Shown here: one piece after another, positions 38,263 through 46,698 of the stretch
How the letters are laid out: each line of letters starts with the position of its first letter
Numbering within the stretch: position 1 is the first letter of the stretch
DNA from: Pantoea coffeiphila
GTDB lineage: Bacteria > Pseudomonadota > Gammaproteobacteria > Enterobacterales > Enterobacteriaceae
Assembly (NCBI RefSeq): GCF_016909495.1
Contig: NZ_JAFBFW010000003.1
Span: forward strand, 310,001 to 374,000
Reading direction: 5' to 3'
DNA length: 64,000 bases
Notes under the pieces: model-generated
Told to the model about the DNA's origin: nothing
Seen by the model: only the letters and a program-made list of their open reading frames with translations
Databases searched by the model: none
Translations under genes and position numbers: made by a program

Positions 38263-38649
38263 ATGCGTAAATTATTGATTGCAATGTTGAGCTCTGCCCT
38301 GTTGTGCGCCGCCTCCCCGCTGCTGGCGCAGGATCTTGAAGGCGACATGGACGTTTTGAAAGGTGCCTTACGGACGGTACAGAAAACCGATGATAAGGCA
38401 GAGATGGTTCGCGCCTTAAGCGATATGCGCACCGCTGCCAGCGATGCGAAAACTCATACGCCGGACAAGCTGGAGGGCCAGCCCGCCGACAGCGCGCAGG
38501 TGAAGGACTATCATGCTGAACTGGATAAGCTGATTGGCCAGATTGACGATAGCCTGAAGCTGGCGAATGCCGGTGATTTAGCCGGAGCAAAGGAACAGGC
38601 GAAGCAATTTGCCGCAACTCGTGACGAAGGCCATAAGAAATTTCGCTAA
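38263..38649 (+). CDS. cybC: Soluble cytochrome b562
   Basis: A periplasmic four-helix-bundle haem protein. The 128-residue precursor has a 22-residue signal peptide (to SPLLA), giving a 106-residue mature protein that equals the E. coli mature length. Haem ligands fall exactly at mature Met7 (QDLEGDM) and His102 (DEGHKKFR). No CxxCH is present, so haem is non-covalent. Its electron partners are unknown. It is the last gene of the 95-min-type block. Confidence 0.93.
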   Translation: MRKLLIAMLSSALLCAASPLLAQDLEGDMDVLKGALRTVQKTDDKAEMVRALSDMRTAASDAKTHTPDKLEGQPADSAQVKDYHAELDKLIGQIDDSLKLANAGDLAGAKEQAKQFAATRDEGHKKFR

Positions 38650-38997: not shown

Positions 38998-39330
38998 GTG
39001 AGTAATGGAACGTTGTCGGCCACAGAACGCAGCGACGAAATTCAGGCTTTGGCAGAGCAGGTGATGGCGCAAATTGCCGGACTGTTTGCAGAACGAGCCA
39101 TTGTGCCTAACGCGGTTCAGCAACAGATGCTGACTTCGCACGTTAAGGCGATGGCACTGCGATCGCTCACCGGCGAACCGCTGCCGGAGGTGGAGGCAGA
39201 ACTGTTTGAAGATATTTCAGCAGCGTCGATGACGTTGGCGCAGCAGGTGGTGGATCTGTTTGGCAACCTGCCCAAAGAGGAAGCCTGGCTCCTCTCCGTA
39301 CATTTTGAAGTGGCGAAAGAAAACGCCTGA
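38998..39330 (+). CDS. Stand-alone PRD-domain protein
   Basis: A 110-residue protein consisting of one PTS regulation domain. The two conserved PRD histidines are present at H48 (TSHVKAMALR) and H102 (LLSVHFEVAKEN), so it could be phosphorylated by HPr or an EII component. It has no DNA- or RNA-binding domain. The start is GTG after AGGGGGA. It heads the operon and matches the small PRD proteins (EF_0829/AHA_3910 type) known only from this conserved gene cluster. Role unknown; perhaps a phosphorylation decoy or partner of the regulator encoded at 44788-46698. Confidence 0.75.
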   Translation: MSNGTLSATERSDEIQALAEQVMAQIAGLFAERAIVPNAVQQQMLTSHVKAMALRSLTGEPLPEVEAELFEDISAASMTLAQQVVDLFGNLPKEEAWLLSVHFEVAKENA

Positions 39331-39421
39331 TTAGCCCGGTTAGCTTGTCATTTTGGGGTTGGGAAACTGACAGCACCACCGAGGTTACGCGTAGTAACTC
39401 ATTCAATTTAAGGAACACAGC

Positions 39422-39781
39422 ATGTCTCAAATTATTGTAGTGATCGGCGATCGTTTAGGTAAAGGCCAGAAAGTTGCTGCGGGCGTCGAGAAAGCTGGCG
39501 GTAAAGCCATTGTGGTACCGGGCGTAGCGGCAGATATGAAGCTGGGCGATGTGATGAAAGCGGAAAATGCCACCTTCGGCATCTCGTTCTGCGGCAGCGG
39601 CGGTGCCGGTGCGATCACCGCGCAGACCAAGTATGGCTATAAAGCGAAATACGGCATGCGTTCCGTCGATGAGGGCGTTACCGCCATCAACGAGGGGGCG
39701 AACGTGCTGGGCTTCGGCTTTATGGATAAAGAAGAGCTGGGCGAGCGTCTGGTTCTGGCCTGGCAGAAGAAGCACGGCTGA
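39422..39781 (+). CDS. SFCGS-family glycine-rich protein
   Basis: A 119-residue soluble protein of unknown function, named for its motif (GISFCGSGGAGAITAQTKYGYKAKYGMRSV). A Rossmann-like start (IIVVIGDRLGKGQKVAAGV) is visible. The CGSGGAG loop recalls the Cys-containing phosphate loop of PTS EIIB proteins, but this is only a visual resemblance. Its stop codon overlaps the next start by one base (TGATG), so it is translated together with the DUF4312 protein. Confidence 0.75.
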   Translation: MSQIIVVIGDRLGKGQKVAAGVEKAGGKAIVVPGVAADMKLGDVMKAENATFGISFCGSGGAGAITAQTKYGYKAKYGMRSVDEGVTAINEGANVLGFGFMDKEELGERLVLAWQKKHG

Positions 39782-40080
39782 TGAAAGAGCAATTCACCAC
39801 GACGGTGACCGTCAGCGGTAAAGGCGACAGCAAGGGCAAAGCCTTTGCTGATGCCCTCAGCCGGGTACAAAACACGGTACTGAAATCCACCAGCAAAATC
39901 CTGCTGCGCATTGAACCGGTTGATGTTCAGGTGCTGCGGGCCACGCAGAGCGTTAAAACCGAGAAGTTTTTGTTCTTCTTCCTCGCGCGCGAACGACGGC
40001 TGTACAGCGTGGATCTGGCGATTACCGTCAATGTCTCGGTGGTTGATGCCGAGCAGGTGGATTTCTCCTCGAAAAGCTAA
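39781..40080 (+). CDS. DUF4312 family protein
   Basis: A 99-residue soluble protein of unknown function that occurs only with the genes around it. The sequence alternates short strands and helices (FTTTVTVSGKGDSKGKAFADAL, DLAITVNVSVVDAEQVDF) and has no transmembrane segment. It starts on the last base of the SFCGS gene stop and ends 33 bases before the DUF4311 gene. Constant co-occurrence with two membrane proteins suggests a soluble subunit of the same complex. Confidence 0.75.
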   Translation: MKEQFTTTVTVSGKGDSKGKAFADALSRVQNTVLKSTSKILLRIEPVDVQVLRATQSVKTEKFLFFFLARERRLYSVDLAITVNVSVVDAEQVDFSSKS

Positions 40081-40113
40081 AAACGTTGGGCAATAAAACT
40101 AAAGGAAAAGCTA

Positions 40114-40890
40114 ATGTTTTTAATCATTTTATTTAAATCGCTGATTATCGGCGGGCTGGTTGGGGTCGGCGTTGGCGCCGGTGCCGCCCGCATGTTTCAC
40201 GCCCCGACGTCTCAGGGAATGGGCGCATTTCGTACACTGGGTGAGCTGAACTCCTGTGAAGGCGATCCGGCCTCTCACTTCTCGTTCGGACTGGGCTTCT
40301 TCTTTAACGCCTGGGCGTCATCGGTTGCCGCCGGCTCCTTCACCCAGGACGTTGATCACCGCATTATCCCGAACTGGGGTGCGGCCGCGCTGATGGTGAA
40401 GAACCGCAACGTGGCGGAAACGCTGCATAACCCGAAAAAGATGGCGATTGCCTGCGGCATCATCGGCATGATCGTCGTCGCTTTCCTCAACTCTACCGCC
40501 TCAGCCGTACCGGCAGCGCTACAGGTCACGGCGGTTAAAGTACTGGTTCCGGCCGCAAACCTGCTGGTGAATACCGTCATGCCGGTGATCTTCTGGCTGG
40601 CGGCAATCGATGCCGGTAAGAAATCCGGTTTCTGGGCAACCATTTTCGGCGGCCTGGCGCAGTTGATCATGGGCAACGCCGTACCGGGCCTGGTACTGGG
40701 CATCCTGATTGGTAAGGGTGTGGAAGAAGCGGGCTGGAATCGCGTCACCAAAGTGATGATGGTCGCCATTGTGCTGCTGTTCGTGCTGAGCGGTTTCTTC
40801 CGTGGTTTCGATATGAAGATGCTGGAATCCTTCCAGCTCGGCGTACCGGGCTGGCTGGAGATGATCCACAACTCCCTGAGCGGCAAATAA
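40114..40890 (+). CDS. DUF4311 integral membrane protein
   Basis: A 258-residue polytopic membrane protein of unknown function. Hydrophobic stretches include LIILFKSLIIGGLVGVGVGAG, MAIACGIIGMIVVAFLNST, LLVNTVMPVIFWLAAI, LVLGILIGKG and VMMVAIVLLFVLSGFF, about six to seven helices. The acidic/Cys segment ELNSCEGDPASHFSFGLGFFFNAW is a likely functional site. It pairs with the DUF4310 gene 13 bases downstream; together they are the probable membrane channel of an uptake system. Confidence 0.78.
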   Translation: MFLIILFKSLIIGGLVGVGVGAGAARMFHAPTSQGMGAFRTLGELNSCEGDPASHFSFGLGFFFNAWASSVAAGSFTQDVDHRIIPNWGAAALMVKNRNVAETLHNPKKMAIACGIIGMIVVAFLNSTASAVPAALQVTAVKVLVPAANLLVNTVMPVIFWLAAIDAGKKSGFWATIFGGLAQLIMGNAVPGLVLGILIGKGVEEAGWNRVTKVMMVAIVLLFVLSGFFRGFDMKMLESFQLGVPGWLEMIHNSLSGK

Positions 40891-40903
40891 GAGGACGATG
40901 GAA

Positions 40904-41548
40904 ATGGAAGAGTCAAAACGCGGTTTTTGGTACGACGACTGGTCATTCCCGATCTTTGTCGGCCTGCTTTCTGCCGGGGTGTTCGCCGGTACACACATGT
41001 ATTACGTCTATGGCCTGGGTGCCTTTAACGAAGTGGCCTTTGTTTCGATGCTGCGTTCGGGCATGGAAACCGGCGTTTATGGTGCGGTAGCGGCCTTCGG
41101 TGCCAGCTTCCTGTTTGCCCGCATCATTGAAGGCTCGCTGGTGGGGATTCTTGATATCGGCGGCGCTATCCAGACCGGTATCGGCCTGGGCGTTCCCGCG
41201 TTGCTGCTGGGCGCGGGCTTCGTTTTCCCCGTGGCGAACTTTGCCGCGTCGCTGGTTACCGGCATGGTGCTCGGGCTGGCGGTGGGCTACATCATTATTC
41301 TGGCACGTAAATTCACCATCAATAACAGCGACTCCACCTACGGTGCGGATGTGATGATGGGCGCGGGTAATACCTCAGGCCGCTTCCTCGGGCCGTTGAT
41401 TATCCTCTCCGCGATGACCGCATCGATTCCGATTGGTCTGGGTTCGCTGGTGGGTTCACTGCTGTTTTACCTTTGGGGTAAACCGATTACCGGCGGGGCT
41501 ATTCTCGGTGCGATGGTGCTGGGTGCCATCTTCCCGATCGCCCTGTAA
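40904..41548 (+). CDS. DUF4310 integral membrane protein
   Basis: A 214-residue polytopic membrane protein of unknown function. Hydrophobic segments include FPIFVGLLSAGVFAGTHMYY, GAVAAFGASFLFARIIEGSLVG, IGLGVPALLLGAGFVFPV and the Gly-rich C-terminus (LVGSLLFYLWGKPITGGAIL). I choose the ATG at 40904, 8 bases after GAGGA; the ATG at 40898 is also in frame but too close to that site. It always accompanies DUF4311 in this cluster type. Confidence 0.78.
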   Translation: MEESKRGFWYDDWSFPIFVGLLSAGVFAGTHMYYVYGLGAFNEVAFVSMLRSGMETGVYGAVAAFGASFLFARIIEGSLVGILDIGGAIQTGIGLGVPALLLGAGFVFPVANFAASLVTGMVLGLAVGYIIILARKFTINNSDSTYGADVMMGAGNTSGRFLGPLIILSAMTASIPIGLGSLVGSLLFYLWGKPITGGAILGAMVLGAIFPIAL

Positions 41549-41593
41549 TCACTCAACGTGGCGGCCAGCGCCGCCACGATCCGGAGGTTCACC

Positions 41594-42727
41594 ATGTATG
41601 ACCTGATTATCCGCAATGCCCGCCTCAGCGATGGTTCGTTAAGCGATGTGGCGTTACAGGCGGGGAAAATTGCCGCAGTGGGTGCCGTCACCGGCCCGGC
41701 AGCGCGGGAGTGGGATCTGGCCGGGCGCTACTGGCTGAGCGCGGGCTGGATTGATTCACACGTCCACTGCTATCCCAAATCACCGATCTACCACGATGAA
41801 GCCGATCGCATCGGCGTTGATACCGGTGTCACCACGGTGATCGATGCGGGCAGCACCGGTGCCGACGACGTGGATGATTTCTGGCAGCTTACGCGCGACT
41901 GCACCACCCGGGTTTATGCGCTGATGAATATCGCCCGCAGCGGCATTCTGACCCAGAACGAGCTGGGCGATATGGCGAGGATCGATGGCCCCGCGCTGAA
42001 AGCAGCGTTACAGCGCCGTCCGGACTTTATCGTCGGCCTGAAGGCGCGCATCAGCAGCAGCGTCGTTGAGCAAAACGGCATTAAACCGCTGGAGCGGGCC
42101 AAAGCGCTGCAGAAAGAGAACGGCGGTCTGCCACTGATGGTTCACATCGGCAATAACCCACCGAATCTGGATGAAATCGCCGATCTGCTGACCTCCGGCG
42201 ACATCATCACCCACTGCTACAACGGCAAGCCAAACCGCATCCTGACGCCGGAAGGCCAGCTGCGTGCGTCGGTCAGCCGGGCGATCCAGCGCGGCGTGCG
42301 GCTGGATGTGGGACACGGCACCGCCAGCTTCAACTTTGAGGTGGCGCGGGTAGCAATTGCTCAGGGCATTCTGCCGCAGACCATCAGTTCCGATATTTAC
42401 TGTCGTAACCGCATTAACGGTCCGGTACACAGCCTGGCGCACGTGATGTCGAAGTTCCTGCACGTCGGCATGACGCTGTCGCAGGTGATCGACTGCGTGA
42501 CCGTTCACGCCGCAGACGGACTGAAGCTTCAGGGCAAAGGTCGTCTGGAGGTGGGATACGAGGCCGATCTGACCATTTTTGACCTGCAGCAGCAGCCGTG
42601 CGTGTTTACCGATTCTGACGGCCACACGCTGGCTGGTGAAACGCAGCTGGTACCGCTTGCCGCGATGGTGGGCGGGCAGGGATTCCTCACCGATGAAGGG
42701 AAAAAACGTAATGACTTCAGTTTATGA
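41594..42727 (+). CDS. Amidohydrolase/deacetylase family metallohydrolase
   Basis: A 377-residue amidohydrolase-superfamily enzyme of the EF_0837/AHA_3915 type. Visible metal ligands are H56 and H58 (DSHVHC), the lysine expected to be carboxylated K150 (VGLKARISS), histidines in MVHIGN and THCYNG, and the late aspartate in TISSDIYCR. It should hydrolyse an amide or N-acyl bond, plausibly deacylating the imported compound before the PLP enzyme. The ATG at 41594 lies 6 bases after GGAGG. The end overlaps the next gene by 17 bases. Confidence 0.82.
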   Translation: MYDLIIRNARLSDGSLSDVALQAGKIAAVGAVTGPAAREWDLAGRYWLSAGWIDSHVHCYPKSPIYHDEADRIGVDTGVTTVIDAGSTGADDVDDFWQLTRDCTTRVYALMNIARSGILTQNELGDMARIDGPALKAALQRRPDFIVGLKARISSSVVEQNGIKPLERAKALQKENGGLPLMVHIGNNPPNLDEIADLLTSGDIITHCYNGKPNRILTPEGQLRASVSRAIQRGVRLDVGHGTASFNFEVARVAIAQGILPQTISSDIYCRNRINGPVHSLAHVMSKFLHVGMTLSQVIDCVTVHAADGLKLQGKGRLEVGYEADLTIFDLQQQPCVFTDSDGHTLAGETQLVPLAAMVGGQGFLTDEGKKRNDFSL

Positions 42728-43832
42728 GAAATATGGCCTGAAACAGGTGATTAACGCCTCGGGCCGCATGACCATTCTGGGTGTTTCCACCCCGGCGGCA
42801 GACGTGGTGGAGACGGTAAAATACGGTCTTAACCACTACTTTGAGATGAAAGACCTGGTCAACAAAACCGGCGCGTACATCGCCGGGCTGCTGAACTGCG
42901 AAGCGGCGGTAGTGGTTTCCTGCGCCTCCGCCGGTATTGCACAGTCCGTGGCTGGCGTGATCGTTAAGGACAACGACTGGCTGCTGGAAAACCTGCACGC
43001 CGCGCCGCTGACCGTGCCGCACGATATCGTGTTGCCAAAAGGGCACAACGTGAACTTCGGCGCGCCGGTCGGCACTATGGTGACGCTGGGCGGCGGCCGT
43101 CTGGTTGAAGCGGGCTACGCCAATGAATGCTCACCGGAGCAGCTGTCGGCGGCGGTCACGCCAGACACGGCGGCGATCCTCTATATCAAATCCCACCACA
43201 GCGTGCAGAAAAGCCACCTTAGCGTGGAGCAGGCGGTGGCCGTGGCACGCAAGCACGATGTTCCACTGATTGTGGATGCCGCAGCGGAAGAGGATCTGCT
43301 GGCCTACACCGCGCTGGGTGCGGATCTGGTGATCTACAGCGGTGCTAAAGCTATCGAAGGCCCAACCAGCGGGCTGGTGATCGGCAAAAAGCAGCAGGTT
43401 GAGTGGGTTAAGCGCCAGTCGCTGGGCATTGGCCGGGCGATGAAGGTGGGTAAAGAGGGCATTCTTGGCCTTACCCAGGCGATTGAAAACTATCTGGTGC
43501 AGGAAAAAACCAGCGGCGCGCAGATGGTTGAGAAAATGACGCCGTTTATCACCAATCTCAACGGCCTGAACGGCATTCAGGCGCGCGTGGTGTGGGATGC
43601 CGCCGGGCGCGATATCGCTCGTGCGGAGATCCACTTCGATGAGTCGTGCATCGGCATGAGCACCGGCGAGATGGTACAGGCGCTGAAGACCGGCGAGCAG
43701 GCGATCTATTTCCGTGGCTACAAGGCCAACGAAGGTATTGTTGAAGTTGACGTACGCAGCGTCTCCGCCGGGCAGCTGCACCAGATTTTTACCGCTATTC
43801 AGGATTTATTAGCCAGGGGAAAACAGGCATGA
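42711..43832 (+). CDS. DgaE-like PLP-dependent ammonia lyase
   Basis: A 373-residue fold-type I PLP enzyme of the SelA-like family that includes DgaE, the Salmonella D-glucosaminate-6-phosphate ammonia lyase. The PLP-binding lysine is K213 in YSGAKAIEGPTSG, and the aspartate pairing with the cofactor nitrogen lies in PLIVDAAAEED. The expected reaction is elimination of ammonia from a phosphorylated amino sugar acid to give a 2-keto-3-deoxy acid. It starts within the amidohydrolase gene and overlaps the aldolase gene by four bases (ATGA), so the three enzymes are tightly coupled. Confidence 0.83.
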   Translation: MTSVYEKYGLKQVINASGRMTILGVSTPAADVVETVKYGLNHYFEMKDLVNKTGAYIAGLLNCEAAVVVSCASAGIAQSVAGVIVKDNDWLLENLHAAPLTVPHDIVLPKGHNVNFGAPVGTMVTLGGGRLVEAGYANECSPEQLSAAVTPDTAAILYIKSHHSVQKSHLSVEQAVAVARKHDVPLIVDAAAEEDLLAYTALGADLVIYSGAKAIEGPTSGLVIGKKQQVEWVKRQSLGIGRAMKVGKEGILGLTQAIENYLVQEKTSGAQMVEKMTPFITNLNGLNGIQARVVWDAAGRDIARAEIHFDESCIGMSTGEMVQALKTGEQAIYFRGYKANEGIVEVDVRSVSAGQLHQIFTAIQDLLARGKQA

Positions 43833-44569
43833 AACTGACACCAAAATTCTATCGCGATCGTGTATGTCTTAACGTCCTGGCCGGTTCTAAACAGAACGCC
43901 AGAGATATCTGGGAAGCCGCTGAAGGCCACGTGCTGGTCGGCGTCCTGTCTAAAAACTACGACAGCGTGGACAGCGCGGTAAAAGATATGCGCGAGTATG
44001 CGGCGCTGATCGACAACGCGCTTTCCGTCGGGCTGGGCGCGGGCGATCCGAACCAGTCAGCGATGGTTAGTGCGATTTCGGCACAGGTTCAGCCGCAGCA
44101 CGTGAACCAGGTGTTCACCGGCGTGGGCACCAGCCGCGCACTGCTGGGCCAGACGGAAACGGTGGTCAACGGTCTGGCATCACCTACCGGGCGTCCCGGC
44201 ATGGTGAAAATCTCTACCGGTCCGCTGAGCTGCAAAGAGGAAGACGGCATTGTGCCGGTCGCTACGGCGATCGCGATGCTGAAAGATATGGGCGGCAGCT
44301 CGGTCAAGTTCTTCCCGATGGATAAGATGGTGGATATTAACGAGTTCCGCGCGCTGGCCGAAGCCTGCGCCGCGAACGACTTCTGGCTGGAGCCAACCGG
44401 CGGCATCGATCTGAACAACTACGAGACGATCCTGCGCATTGCGCTGGATGCCGGGGTAAGCAAAATTATTCCGCACATCTACAGCTCGATCATTGATAAA
44501 GCCACCGGGCTGACCCGTCCGGCGGATGTCGCCACGCTGATGGCGATCACCCGCAAAGTGATGGCGTAA
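43829..44569 (+). CDS. DgaF-like 2-dehydro-3-deoxy-phosphogluconate aldolase
   Basis: A 246-residue aldolase of the DgaF type, expected to split 2-keto-3-deoxy-6-phosphogluconate into pyruvate and glyceraldehyde 3-phosphate. The likely Schiff-base lysine is K160 (GGSSVKFFPMDK), and the C-terminal phosphate-binding region is WLEPTGGIDLNNYETI. It is the last enzyme of the operon, coupled to the PLP gene by an ATGA overlap. The exact substrate depends on the unverified upstream steps. Confidence 0.85.
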   Translation: MKLTPKFYRDRVCLNVLAGSKQNARDIWEAAEGHVLVGVLSKNYDSVDSAVKDMREYAALIDNALSVGLGAGDPNQSAMVSAISAQVQPQHVNQVFTGVGTSRALLGQTETVVNGLASPTGRPGMVKISTGPLSCKEEDGIVPVATAIAMLKDMGGSSVKFFPMDKMVDINEFRALAEACAANDFWLEPTGGIDLNNYETILRIALDAGVSKIIPHIYSSIIDKATGLTRPADVATLMAITRKVMA

Positions 44570-44578
44570 GCCGGATTT

Positions 44579-44618
44579 CCCGCCGTTGGACGATCGTTTT
44601 TGATCTTACAACGGCGGG
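44579..44618. promoter_or_regulatory. Nested inverted repeat between dgaF-like gene and regulator
   Basis: CCCGCCGTTG (44579-44588) and CAACGGCGGG (44609-44618) form a perfect 10-bp stem; inside it, GATC at 44592-44595 and 44602-44605 form a second short stem around a T-rich loop. An A-run rather than a T-run follows on the plus strand, so it is not a standard terminator. It may slow transcription into the regulator gene or be a protein-binding site. Confidence 0.5.
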
Positions 44619-44787
44619 GAAAAATCTATTCTTTCCGAAACAAAATCTCGCACTTTTTGAATAAATTGCGATATCTGTCAAATGAAAATTTGCAGAGGCT
44701 GCTACGCTATTTTTTCGGCGCGAATAAAGGTAGGCTGAGTATAAAAACACCCCATAAAACGCTTCAATTTGATGATAATGGTACCCC

Positions 44788-46698
44788 GTGAGATTCCCCA
44801 ACCAACGACTGGCACAGCTGTTTGACCTTCTGCAAAATGAAATCCTGCCGCAGGATGAACTGGCGCGCCGACTGGCCGTTTCCACCCGCACTGTACGCAC
44901 CGACGTTACCGCCCTCAATGAACTGCTGGCCGACCACGGCGCCAGTTTTGTCCTTAGCCGCGGCGAAGGCTACCAGTTAAAGATTGATGATGCCGGGCGC
45001 TATGACCGCCTGCTGCAACAGTCAACGTCGAGCCTTCGTGTGCCGCGAACCTCAACGGAACGGGTCCATTACCTGTTAACCCGTTTTCTTACCTCGGCTT
45101 TTTCCCTCAAGCTGGAAGACCTGGCAGATGAATGGTTTGTCAGCCGCACCACGCTGCAAGGTGATATGGCAGAGGTGAGAGAATGGCTAAGCCGTTACGG
45201 CCTGGAGATTGAAACCCGGCCACGTTACGGCATGAAGCTGTTCGGCAGTGAAGCGGCGATGCGCACCTGCCTGACCGATCTGCTCTATCAGCTGGCGCAG
45301 GAGGATGCCGACAGCCCGCTGCTCAAGCTGGAAGCGCTGAACCGGGGTATGCTGGCCACGCTGCAGCCGATGCTGCTGGATTGCCTGTCGCGCTTTAATA
45401 TCCGCCTGGCCGACGATGCCGAGCTGTATCTGCGTCTCTACTGCGCGGTGGCGGTGCGCCGCATCGCCGAGGGTTATCCGCTGTCTGATTTTATTGCCGC
45501 AGACGTCGCCGACGACGTGCGTGATGCGGCTCGCCACATTATTAACCTGATGCGACCGATTACCGGTAAAAGTATCTCTCCGGCGGAAGAGGCCTGGCTA
45601 CAGGTGCATATTGCCGCCAGGCGCATTGAAGAATCCGCACCCAGCGCCATCAGCCCGGACGATGGCGAATCGCTGGTGGATTACATTCTCAACTACATCA
45701 ACAGCCATTACGGTTTTAATCTGCAAAACGACCCGCAGCTGCGTGCCGATCTGCTGACGCATATTAAAACCATGATTACCCGGGTGCGTTACCAGATTAA
45801 TATCCCCAATCCGCTGCTGGCGAATATCAAACAGCACTATCCGATGGCGTACGACGTCACGCTGGCGGCGGTCTCCAGCTGGGGTAAATATACCCCCTAT
45901 GCCATCAGCGAAAACGAAGTGGGATTCCTGGTGCTGCATATCGGCGTCGGGCTGGAGCGCCACTATAACGTTGGCTATCAGCGCTATCCGCTGGTGCTGC
46001 TGGTCTGCGATACCGGCAATTCGACGGTACGGATGATCCAGGCGATGCTGATGCGTAAATACCCGCAGATTGAAGTGCGCCGCATCATTTCCCTGCGTGA
46101 ATACGAACAGCTGGCGGCGGTGGAAGAAGACTTCGTGATTTCCACCGCGCGGCTCAGCGATAAAGATAAGCCGGTGGTGGTGATGTCGCCGTTCCCTACC
46201 GATTTTCAGCTCGAACAGCTGGGCAAGCAGGTGCTGCTGGATCGCACCCGTCCTTACATGCTGGAGAAGTTTTTTGACGCCAGCCACTTCTGCATTATCG
46301 ATCGTGAGATCGATCGTTCCGAGCTGTTCCGCCAGCTGTGCGATCGGCTGGAACAGGAAGGGATCGTAGACGAGACATTTTACCCGTCTGTCGAGGAGCG
46401 CGAGGCGATTGTCAGCACCATGCTGGGCGAGGGGATTGCGCTGCCGCACTCTCTTGGCCTGCTATCGAAGAAGACCTGCGTTTATACGGTGCTGGCCCCA
46501 CAGGGGATTAAATGGGGCGATGAAACCGCCTATGTCATTTTCCTGCTGGCGATCAGCAAAAGTGAGTATGAAGAGGCGATGGCGATCTACGATCTGTTCG
46601 TGACGTTTATGCGTGAACGGGCGATGACGCGGCTGCGGGACAGCAAGGATTTTGACAGTTTTAAAGCGGTGGCGATGGACTGTTTGAGTCGGCTGTAG
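44788..46698 (+). CDS. PRD/EIIB/EIIA-containing transcriptional regulator (BglG/MtlR type)
   Basis: A 636-residue regulator. Order of domains: N-terminal DeoR-type helix-turn-helix (QDELARRLAVSTRTVRTDVTAL), a second Mga-like helix-turn-helix (SLKLEDLADEWFVSRTTLQGDM), PRD1 (about 180-290), PRD2 (about 295-400), an EIIB-like domain with C407 (LLVCDTGNST), and a C-terminal EIIA-like domain with H554 (GEGIALPHS). PRD2 keeps both histidines (THIKTMITR, LVLHIGVGLER); PRD1 has tyrosine (Y218) at its first histidine position. This fits a DNA-binding activator that reads PTS phosphorylation. Start GTG with a weak site. Presumably it controls the operon at 38998-44569. Confidence 0.85.
   Translation: MRFPNQRLAQLFDLLQNEILPQDELARRLAVSTRTVRTDVTALNELLADHGASFVLSRGEGYQLKIDDAGRYDRLLQQSTSSLRVPRTSTERVHYLLTRFLTSAFSLKLEDLADEWFVSRTTLQGDMAEVREWLSRYGLEIETRPRYGMKLFGSEAAMRTCLTDLLYQLAQEDADSPLLKLEALNRGMLATLQPMLLDCLSRFNIRLADDAELYLRLYCAVAVRRIAEGYPLSDFIAADVADDVRDAARHIINLMRPITGKSISPAEEAWLQVHIAARRIEESAPSAISPDDGESLVDYILNYINSHYGFNLQNDPQLRADLLTHIKTMITRVRYQINIPNPLLANIKQHYPMAYDVTLAAVSSWGKYTPYAISENEVGFLVLHIGVGLERHYNVGYQRYPLVLLVCDTGNSTVRMIQAMLMRKYPQIEVRRIISLREYEQLAAVEEDFVISTARLSDKDKPVVVMSPFPTDFQLEQLGKQVLLDRTRPYMLEKFFDASHFCIIDREIDRSELFRQLCDRLEQEGIVDETFYPSVEEREAIVSTMLGEGIALPHSLGLLSKKTCVYTVLAPQGIKWGDETAYVIFLLAISKSEYEEAMAIYDLFVTFMRERAMTRLRDSKDFDSFKAVAMDCLSRL

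What the first reader, a model, noticed from the sequence alone, without database searches (positions are those of the whole stretch)
38998..46698. Nine-gene accessory operon: candidate uncharacterised uptake system coupled to a DgaE/DgaF-type pathway
Seen: PRD protein, SFCGS protein, DUF4312, DUF4311 (membrane), DUF4310 (membrane), amidohydrolase, DgaE-like PLP lyase, DgaF-like aldolase and a PRD/EIIB/EIIA regulator, in one direction, with overlaps of 1, 17 and 4 bases between several genes. Known: the same set occurs in a conserved cluster of Enterococcus faecalis and Aeromonas (EF_0829-EF_0839/AHA_3910-3917 families) with no assigned function; Salmonella DgaEF degrade D-glucosaminate 6-phosphate after uptake by a mannose-type PTS. 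Inference: DUF4310/4311/4312/SFCGS replace the PTS permease as a novel transporter, and the amidohydrolase deacylates an N-acyl amino sugar acid before ammonia loss and aldol cleavage to pyruvate and glyceraldehyde 3-phosphate.
Basis: partly seen in the sequence, partly recalled or inferred. Interest (0 to 1): 0.88.

Follow-up and report, generated by a model that had tools for sequence, protein, structure and literature searches.

The report
Amino-sugar-acid cassette, possible new transporter
Nine neighbouring genes in an Erwinia-like bacterium appear to take up and break down an acylated amino-sugar acid, and four of them look like an uptake system of a kind nobody has characterised, which may add phosphate to its cargo as it imports it.

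Summary
In detail: nine genes, one strand, overlaps of 1, 17 and 4 bases. Eight proteins meet curated NCBIfam models of the EF_0829-EF_0839 cluster or the DgaE subfamily; the ninth (regulator) was typed by Pfam domains. The set is a widespread, uncharacterised unit: all 99 DUF-module loci not cut by a contig end carry all nine genes, 98 in the same order.

The catabolic reading is well supported in outline; the substrate is not shown, and the lyase fails the strict D-glucosaminate-6-phosphate model.

The transport reading is partly supported, by comparison only. Around the same enzymes other bacteria carry a gluconate symporter, a lactose-type PTS or a mannose-type PTS. A kinase accompanies the first two but was not found beside the DUF module in 98 complete proteobacterial loci, and the lyase keeps the proposed phosphate-binding arginines. 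This suggests a phosphorylated substrate is delivered.

New here: SFCGS looks like a degenerate RpiB/LacAB-type protein, and SFCGS, the PRD protein and (weakly) DUF4310 resemble YhfU, YhfY and YhfT of the uncharacterised E. coli yhf operon. A general link to the cell's own chitin-oxidising LPMO was tested and not supported. AlphaFold models were unusable.

The parts
38998..39330 (+). small stand-alone PRD protein (EF_0829 family, 110 aa, GTG start)
   Evidence: TIGR03582 134.3 bits vs cut-off 69.35; H48 and H102 at least 98% conserved in 117 aligned sequences
39422..39781 (+). SFCGS glycine-rich protein (EF_0830 family), degenerate RpiB/LacAB-type protein with conserved Cys57
   Evidence: TIGR03577 219.7 bits vs 141.1; weak matches to TIGR02133 (E 7.7e-4) and PF02502 (E 0.023); profile comparisons and alignment
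39781..40080 (+). DUF4312 protein (EF_0831 family), small soluble-looking subunit, role unknown
   Evidence: TIGR03578 133.6 bits vs 89.65
40114..40890 (+). DUF4311 membrane protein (EF_0832 family), candidate permease subunit
   Evidence: TIGR03580 512.5 bits vs 301.1; hydropathy
40898..41548 (+). DUF4310 membrane protein (EF_0833 family), candidate permease subunit; short, weak similarity to YhfT
   Evidence: TIGR03579 379.4 bits vs 215.45; hhalign P 3.3e-4, 2.5e-3 with a larger alignment; controls
41594..42727 (+). amidohydrolase/deacetylase (EF_0837 family; cog3964 by recall), candidate N-deacylase
   Evidence: TIGR03583 541.3 bits vs 432.15; aligned to PDB 8wzy, 2ics, 2ogj, 8je0
42711..43832 (+). 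DgaE-like PLP ammonia-lyase
   Evidence: TIGR01437 574.5 bits vs 385.3; strict NF047797 not met; R304, R335, R349 and HH162-163 match DGL residues
43829..44569 (+). DgaF-like KDPG-type aldolase
   Evidence: NF047796 376.4 bits vs 300; TIGR03581 385.3 vs 222.4; PDB 3m0z, 3lm7, 3nzr
44788..46698 (+). HTH_11/Mga/PRD/EIIA-2 transcriptional regulator, presumed activator
   Evidence: Pfam matches

Best explanation
The cassette encodes uptake and breakdown of an N-acylated 2-amino-2-deoxy-aldonic acid, most likely N-acetyl-D-glucosaminate or a close isomer. DUF4311 and DUF4310 form the membrane part of an uptake system; SFCGS and DUF4312 are its cytoplasmic subunits; the small PRD protein and the PRD/EIIA regulator tie it to the phosphotransferase (PTS) chain. 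The substrate becomes phosphorylated during or right after import. The amidohydrolase removes the acyl group, the DgaE-like enzyme releases ammonia to give 2-keto-3-deoxy-6-phosphogluconate, and the DgaF-like aldolase splits that into pyruvate and glyceraldehyde 3-phosphate. Shown: gene set, families, conserved order, exchange of transport modules around the same enzymes, no kinase found beside the cassette. Inferred: substrate, transport, phosphorylation step, roles of SFCGS and DUF4312.
For: Families. All nine genes in 99 of 99 uncut DUF-module loci, 98 in the same order. Amidohydrolase (over cut-off) and DUF4311 in the same 12 of 398 genomes. The amidohydrolase-lyase-aldolase core occurs elsewhere with a gluconate:H+ symporter plus kinase (Priestia) or a PTS with MupG-type hydrolase plus kinase (C. 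difficile; Niallia); lyase and aldolase without the amidohydrolase occur with a mannose-type PTS and no kinase (L. paracasei). A cassette-type kinase was found in 0 of the 101 DUF-module loci other than E. faecalis, within the stretches held, and in all 4 loci with a symporter or EIIC. The three arginines near which the DGA-6-P phosphate was placed by manual docking in DGL (R301, R332, R346; PMC9529869) are kept in the window enzyme and in all 12 other DgaF-linked lyases aligned; the one Aminobacter relative, with no aldolase nearby, lacks the third. A Bartonella plasmid copy has an HPr-EI fusion gene directly downstream. Of 32 DUF-module genomes searched, 4 show no KdgK-like kinase of 56% identity or more, one a single-contig genome whose full cassette was fetched. 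A lactonase relative is present in 31 of 106 loci, as expected if the acid arrives as a lactone.
Against: No function of the DUF module was tested, and neither membrane model is usable (pLDDT 63.9 and 51.6). E. faecalis has DUF module, EIIC, MupG-type hydrolase and kinase together. The three arginines are also kept in lyases from kinase-bearing clusters and in PDB 8t7j, so they do not separate substrate forms cleanly. 28 of 32 genomes do have KdgK, so a KDG kinase outside the cassette could serve. No Pfam EIIB match and no separate EIIA subunit is in the cassette; DUF4312 of the window has no histidine. The module-exchange argument rests on few independent clusters: I opened 7 of the 14 plasmid-collection records with an aldolase relative, and Alicyclobacillus and two Listeria records were not opened. 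Two amidohydrolase relatives that I opened (Thermomicrobium, Rhizobium) stand without lyase or aldolase.
Confidence: 0.55

Rival explanations
1. The DUF module is an ordinary secondary transporter that imports the free acid; deacylation and deamination run on unphosphorylated intermediates, and chromosomal KdgK phosphorylates KDG before the aldolase, as in the Ong pathway of marine bacteria.
For: 28 of 32 DUF-module genomes searched have a KdgK relative of 56% identity or more. In the Ong pathway deacetylation and deamination precede phosphorylation (PMC9537276 passages). Priestia pairs the same enzymes with a symporter and a kinase.
Against: Two complete cassettes lie in genomes with no such KdgK relative (G445/L170, one contig; G668/L173, about 250 contigs). 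No kinase was found beside 98 complete proteobacterial cassettes although one stands in all four symporter/EIIC clusters. The lyase keeps the DGL arginines.
Confidence: 0.3
2. The DUF module is not a transporter but a membrane-bound enzyme or sensor complex, and uptake is by an unlinked permease.
For: SFCGS resembles an isomerase superfamily; E. faecalis has a separate EIIC in the cluster; no transporter fold was recognised.
Against: I recognised no other transporter gene among the nine; a known transporter is present in all 4 DUF-free clusters with lyase and aldolase that I opened. SFCGS lacks the RpiB histidines and C-terminal arginines (residue roles recalled).
Confidence: 0.15
3. The pathway serves mainly chitin oxidation products made by the cell's own LPMO (GlcNAc1A), i.e. 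a non-homologous counterpart of the Ong pathway.
For: Same chemistry as OngB-OngC-KdgK. In A. rivuli and A. bestiarum LPMO, KdgK and KdgA homologues were found but OngB/OngC only distantly or not (PMC11653859 passages); an A. caviae record carries this cassette (the two studied species were not checked). All 17 DUF4311 genomes of one family (f103, one genus) have an LPMO. Lactonase linkage.
Against: LPMO in 27 of 62 DUF4311 genomes and 78 of 332 others, an excess carried by that one genus; within the window's family 8 of 25 against 2 of 9; none of 17 in family f105; none in the window's own genome (taking the two 394-genome draws as the same, as their handles suggest).
Confidence: 0.25

Closest known systems
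Salmonella Dga system (DgaABCD PTS, DgaE, DgaF) for D-glucosaminate
   Same: DgaE-family lyase and DgaF-family aldolase; likely the same last two steps
   Different: no mannose-type PTS; adds an amidohydrolase, the DUF module and PRD proteins; the lyase fails the strict DGL model
Ong pathway of Pseudoalteromonas (OngB, OngC, KdgK, OngIT) for N-acetylglucosaminate
   Same: proposed deacetylation, deamination, entry as KDPG
   Different: OngB is a subtype V, D-aminoacylase-like amidohydrolase, OngC a putative D-amino acid deaminase, OngIT an SSS-family transporter (passages); the window proteins fall in other families
E. faecalis EF_0829-EF_0840 cluster
   Same: all nine gene families (regulator only 28% identical)
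   Different: regulator first; extra EIIC, small membrane protein, MupG-type hydrolase and kinase
E. coli yhfSTU-php-yhfWXYZ operon
   Same: PRD protein (YhfY), small RpiB-like protein with Cys loop (YhfU), membrane protein (YhfT), PLP enzyme (YhfS)
   Different: no DUF4312 or DgaF gene annotated; DUF4310-YhfT similarity is short and weak and DUF4311 shows none; function of yhf not found
cog3964 amidohydrolases (2ics, 2ogj, 8wzy)
   Same: sequence relatives of the amidohydrolase
   Different: 2ogj is, by recall, Atu3266, reported to hydrolyse acetyl-(R)-mandelate; substrate of the window enzyme untested

Membership tests
EF_0829-EF_0839 / AHA_3910-3917 conserved cluster | members of TIGR03582, 03577, 03578, 03580, 03579, 03583, 03581 over curated cut-offs | tested here: met
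EF_0829-EF_0839 / AHA_3910-3917 conserved cluster | same gene order | tested here: met
   98 of 99 complete loci share the window's order; E. faecalis has the regulator first and extra genes
[quoted passage not shown]
   363.7 bits
DgaE family lyases (TIGR01437 subfamily) | curated cut-off 385.3 bits | tested here: met
   574.5 bits
DgaE family lyases (TIGR01437 subfamily) | DGL arginines 301, 332, 346 and His 162/163 | tested here: met
   R304, R335, R349 and HH162-163, by counting along the alignments
DgaF-type KDPG aldolase (NF047796) | curated cut-off 300 bits | tested here: met
   376.4 bits
PTS permease | membrane EIIC of a known fold | tested here: inconclusive
   models of low confidence; no Foldseek match at E<=0.001
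PTS permease | separate EIIA and EIIB subunits or domains of known families | tested here: not met
   only the regulator has an EIIA domain; no EIIB Pfam match at E<=1 in any of the nine
PTS permease | PEP-dependent phosphorylation of cargo | not testable with these tools
   needs biochemistry
RpiB/LacAB isomerases | over Pfam PF02502 cut-off | tested here: not met
   15.1 bits vs 24.7
RpiB/LacAB isomerases | active-site Cys, two His, C-terminal Arg (roles recalled) | tested here: not met
   Cys kept; His positions read as R11 and M79; C-terminal arginines absent
Ong pathway | OngB-type D-aminoacylase-like deacetylase with Cys/His/His metal site | not tested
   no direct comparison with OngB made; the enzyme belongs to the EF_0837 family

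The most novel reading that the evidence does not exclude
DUF4311, DUF4310, DUF4312 and SFCGS, with the small PRD protein, form a new class of PTS permease: an RpiB-fold protein with a phosphorylatable cysteine in the EIIB role, a PRD domain as phosphate carrier, and a two-chain membrane part unrelated to known EIIC. The E. coli YhfT/YhfU/YhfY set is a second branch of the same class.
Probability: 0.25. Interest if true: 0.88.

Novelty: new variant of a known kind. Interest (0 to 1): 0.62.

Why it matters
Seven of the nine proteins belong to family models typed 'hypoth_equivalog', yet the set is spread through Enterobacterales and reaches Enterococcus and a Bartonella plasmid. If the reading holds, it gives a substrate class, a complete catabolic route and a testable new uptake machine. 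It would also offer candidates for the deacetylase and deaminase that a 2024 Aeromonas study looked for and did not find as close OngB/OngC homologues, provided those strains carry the cassette, which I did not test. And it would give a first handle on the uncharacterised E. coli yhf operon.
Full report
Observation. NCBIfam assigns proteins 1-6 and 8 to the EF_0829, 0830, 0831, 0832, 0833, 0837 and 0839 families and protein 7 to the DgaE subfamily, all over curated cut-offs. Protein 9 has HTH_11, Mga, PRD and EIIA-2 domains; its EIIB part is not confirmed. Those seven EF models are typed 'hypoth_equivalog'. The nearest genome-contig hit is Erwinia sp. JUb26 (100% identity for DUF4311).

Distribution. 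A genome-contig scan found 498 encoding stretches and kept the best 80. In 394 genomes of the window's order 62 have DUF4311 over cut-off; two more (G435, G508) have only matches under it and were dropped. In 398 Pseudomonadota genomes 12 have it, all in the window's family. Six plasmid-collection records add Aeromonas caviae, Klebsiella pneumoniae (2), Bartonella (2) and Enterococcus faecalis; the Aeromonas and one Klebsiella record are chromosome-sized. I compared 106 loci with the nine proteins: 102 carry the DUF module; 3 of these are cut by a contig end; the other 99 have all nine genes, 98 in the same order and strand. E. faecalis has the regulator first, and its regulator is only 28% identical. 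Most loci are close Enterobacterales relatives, and at least one genome is probably in twice (L075 and L177 come from contigs of equal length), so these are not independent events. DUF4311 and the over-cut-off amidohydrolase occur in the same 12 of 398 genomes; 27 further genomes have more distant amidohydrolase relatives.

Module exchange. The amidohydrolase-lyase-aldolase core exists without the DUF module. Priestia megaterium: core, sugar kinase, GntR regulator, gluconate:H+ symporter. Clostridioides difficile: EIIB, lactose/cellobiose-type EIIA, GntR, EIIC, MupG-type hydrolase, core, kinase. Niallia taxi, read by tblastn because the record is unannotated: EIIB fragment, EIIC, MupG-type, GntR, core, kinase. 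Lacticaseibacillus paracasei: sigma-54 regulator, mannose-type PTS, lyase and aldolase, no amidohydrolase, no kinase, which resembles the Dga arrangement of Salmonella. E. faecalis: DUF module, EIIC, a small membrane protein without Pfam match, MupG-type hydrolase, core, kinase. Cassette-type kinases were found in 4 loci (E. faecalis, Priestia, Niallia, C. difficile) and in none of the other 101 DUF-module loci, within the stretches held. The pattern is that clusters whose uptake route would leave the sugar acid unphosphorylated carry a kinase, whereas mannose-PTS and DUF-module clusters do not. It rests on few independent clusters: I opened 7 of 14 records with an aldolase relative. Two amidohydrolase relatives, in Thermomicrobium and Rhizobium, stand without lyase or aldolase.

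Where phosphate enters. In DGL, DGA-6-P was docked by hand with its phosphate near Arg301, 332 and 346 (PMC9529869, part 1 of 3 of the text read). The window lyase keeps all three (R304, R335, R349) and the His pair. All 13 DgaF-linked lyases aligned, window included, keep the arginines; Bartonella has lost the first of the two histidines; the Aminobacter relative, which has ABC transporter genes, RidA and no aldolase annotated nearby, lacks the third arginine. This favours a phosphorylated substrate, but kinase-bearing clusters and PDB 8t7j share the triad, so it is not decisive. KdgK: of 32 DUF-module genomes that I searched (of the 62), 28 have a relative of 56% identity or more; 4 do not, one of them a 75%-complete assembly. 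Two of the other three (G445, G668) have complete cassettes in hand.

PTS link. The regulator has PRD and EIIA-2 domains; the small PRD protein keeps H48 and H102 in at least 98% of 117 sequences; on a Bartonella plasmid an HPr-EI fusion follows the regulator (one of two Bartonella records opened). The regulator alone could need this phosphate flow, so it does not prove a phosphorylating permease.

SFCGS and the yhf operon. Single-sequence searches hint at ribose-5-phosphate isomerase (TIGR02133 E 7.7e-4; PF02502 E 0.023; both far under cut-off). Profile comparison gives P 0.001-0.003 for SFCGS-RpiB, SFCGS-YhfU and YhfU-RpiB; the reversed profiles of these pairs give 0.062 or worse and 27 comparisons with unrelated soluble families 0.069 or worse. 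These P values are for single comparisons, and hhalign's own probabilities are low: 10% for SFCGS-YhfU, 20% for SFCGS-RpiB. In the joint alignment the CGxG cysteine loop is shared, but the RpiB histidines read as R11 and M79 and the C-terminal arginines are missing, so SFCGS is unlikely to be an ordinary isomerase. The small PRD protein resembles YhfY (one sequence; P 0.001, then 7.5e-5). The lyase resembles YhfS (P 7.5e-6, 84%), as two PLP enzymes may. DUF4310 resembles YhfT over 40 columns (P 3.3e-4, 38%), weakening to P 2.5e-3 over 59 columns with a larger alignment; the best of 30 membrane-family controls against YhfT is 0.0091. DUF4311 does not match YhfT. YhfT is in 12 of 295 genomes of the order and not in the window's genome.

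Substrate. The enzymes fit an N-acyl 2-amino-aldonate. A lactonase-family gene lies between aldolase and regulator in 28 of 81 loci and a relative is found in 31 of 106; the one that I read in full (L072) starts like a signal peptide. This fits a lactone precursor. N-acetylglucosaminate from oxidised chitin is attractive: the Ong pathway does the same chemistry with other proteins (PMC9537276 and PMC12017989, passages), and in two Aeromonas strains OngB/OngC were not found as close homologues although LPMO, KdgK and KdgA homologues were (PMC11653859, passages). But LPMO co-occurrence is 27 of 62 against 78 of 332, driven by one genus; 8 of 25 against 2 of 9 in the window's own family; 0 of 17 in family f105; and none in the window's genome. 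The acid may come from other sources, or be another isomer.

Literature. No paper in the library holds DUF4310, DUF4311 or DUF4312. A search for SFCGS, KDGP aldolase, DgaE family, EF0830 and EF0839 led to PMC7701990 (passages), where EF0839 is said to be possibly linked to amino-sugar metabolism and to fitness; PMC2912369 (passages), where a fragment with the putative ef_0839 or ef_2975 promoter came up in a urine screen; PMC7396535 (passages), which notes duplicated dgaEF genes in E. faecalis; and PMC9019972 (passage), which lists an L. plantarum PTS IIC, DUF871 and DgaE-family gene with near-consecutive tags. No functional assignment of the DUF module was found in these searches; most subscription papers are not held, including Miller et al. 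2013, so a published assignment could be missed.

Verdict. A real, conserved, uncharacterised cassette. The enzymology is probable, the uptake role of the DUF module likely but unproven, and the phosphorylating PTS-like role an open and testable proposal.

Noticed in passing
L099:4936-12345 (E. coli K-12 yhf operon): yhfSTU-php-yhfWXYZ shares a PRD protein, an RpiB-like Cys-loop protein, a membrane protein and a PLP enzyme with the window cassette; function not found.
   Followed up: partly
L098:14504-15658 and 27 further loci: A lactonase-family gene is inserted between aldolase and regulator in Klebsiella, Serratia, Yersinia and others, not in the window.
   Followed up: partly
window 44572-44637: Very stable hairpin (-32.2 kcal/mol, z -5.2) between aldolase and regulator, without a canonical U run; may separate an eight-gene transcript from the regulator.
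   Followed up: partly
L097:8047-10062: HPr-EI fusion gene directly downstream of the cassette on a Bartonella plasmid, beside type VI secretion genes.
   Followed up: partly
L098:8215-8601 and window 38263-38649: In Klebsiella the cassette lies just downstream of cybC (cytochrome b562), and the window's upstream gene looks like cybC too (by recall), while the right-hand neighbours differ, suggesting a shared insertion site.
   Followed up: no
L218:6335-10185: Aminobacter plasmid cluster of ABC transporter, EF_0837-like amidohydrolase, RidA and a SelA-like PLP enzyme: possibly a relative of the same chemistry without phosphate.
   Followed up: partly
L096:18573-19300: The aldolase of this E. 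faecalis record matches in two pieces and no CDS is listed there; it may be interrupted or merely missing from the incomplete gene table.
   Followed up: no
L051:15114-17329 and L066:14669-15991: Other ORFs of unknown function between aldolase and regulator in single genomes.
   Followed up: no
NZ_AP026896.1 and CP125156.1 in the plasmid collection: Records of 4.9 and 5.4 Mb that look like chromosomes filed as plasmids.
   Followed up: no
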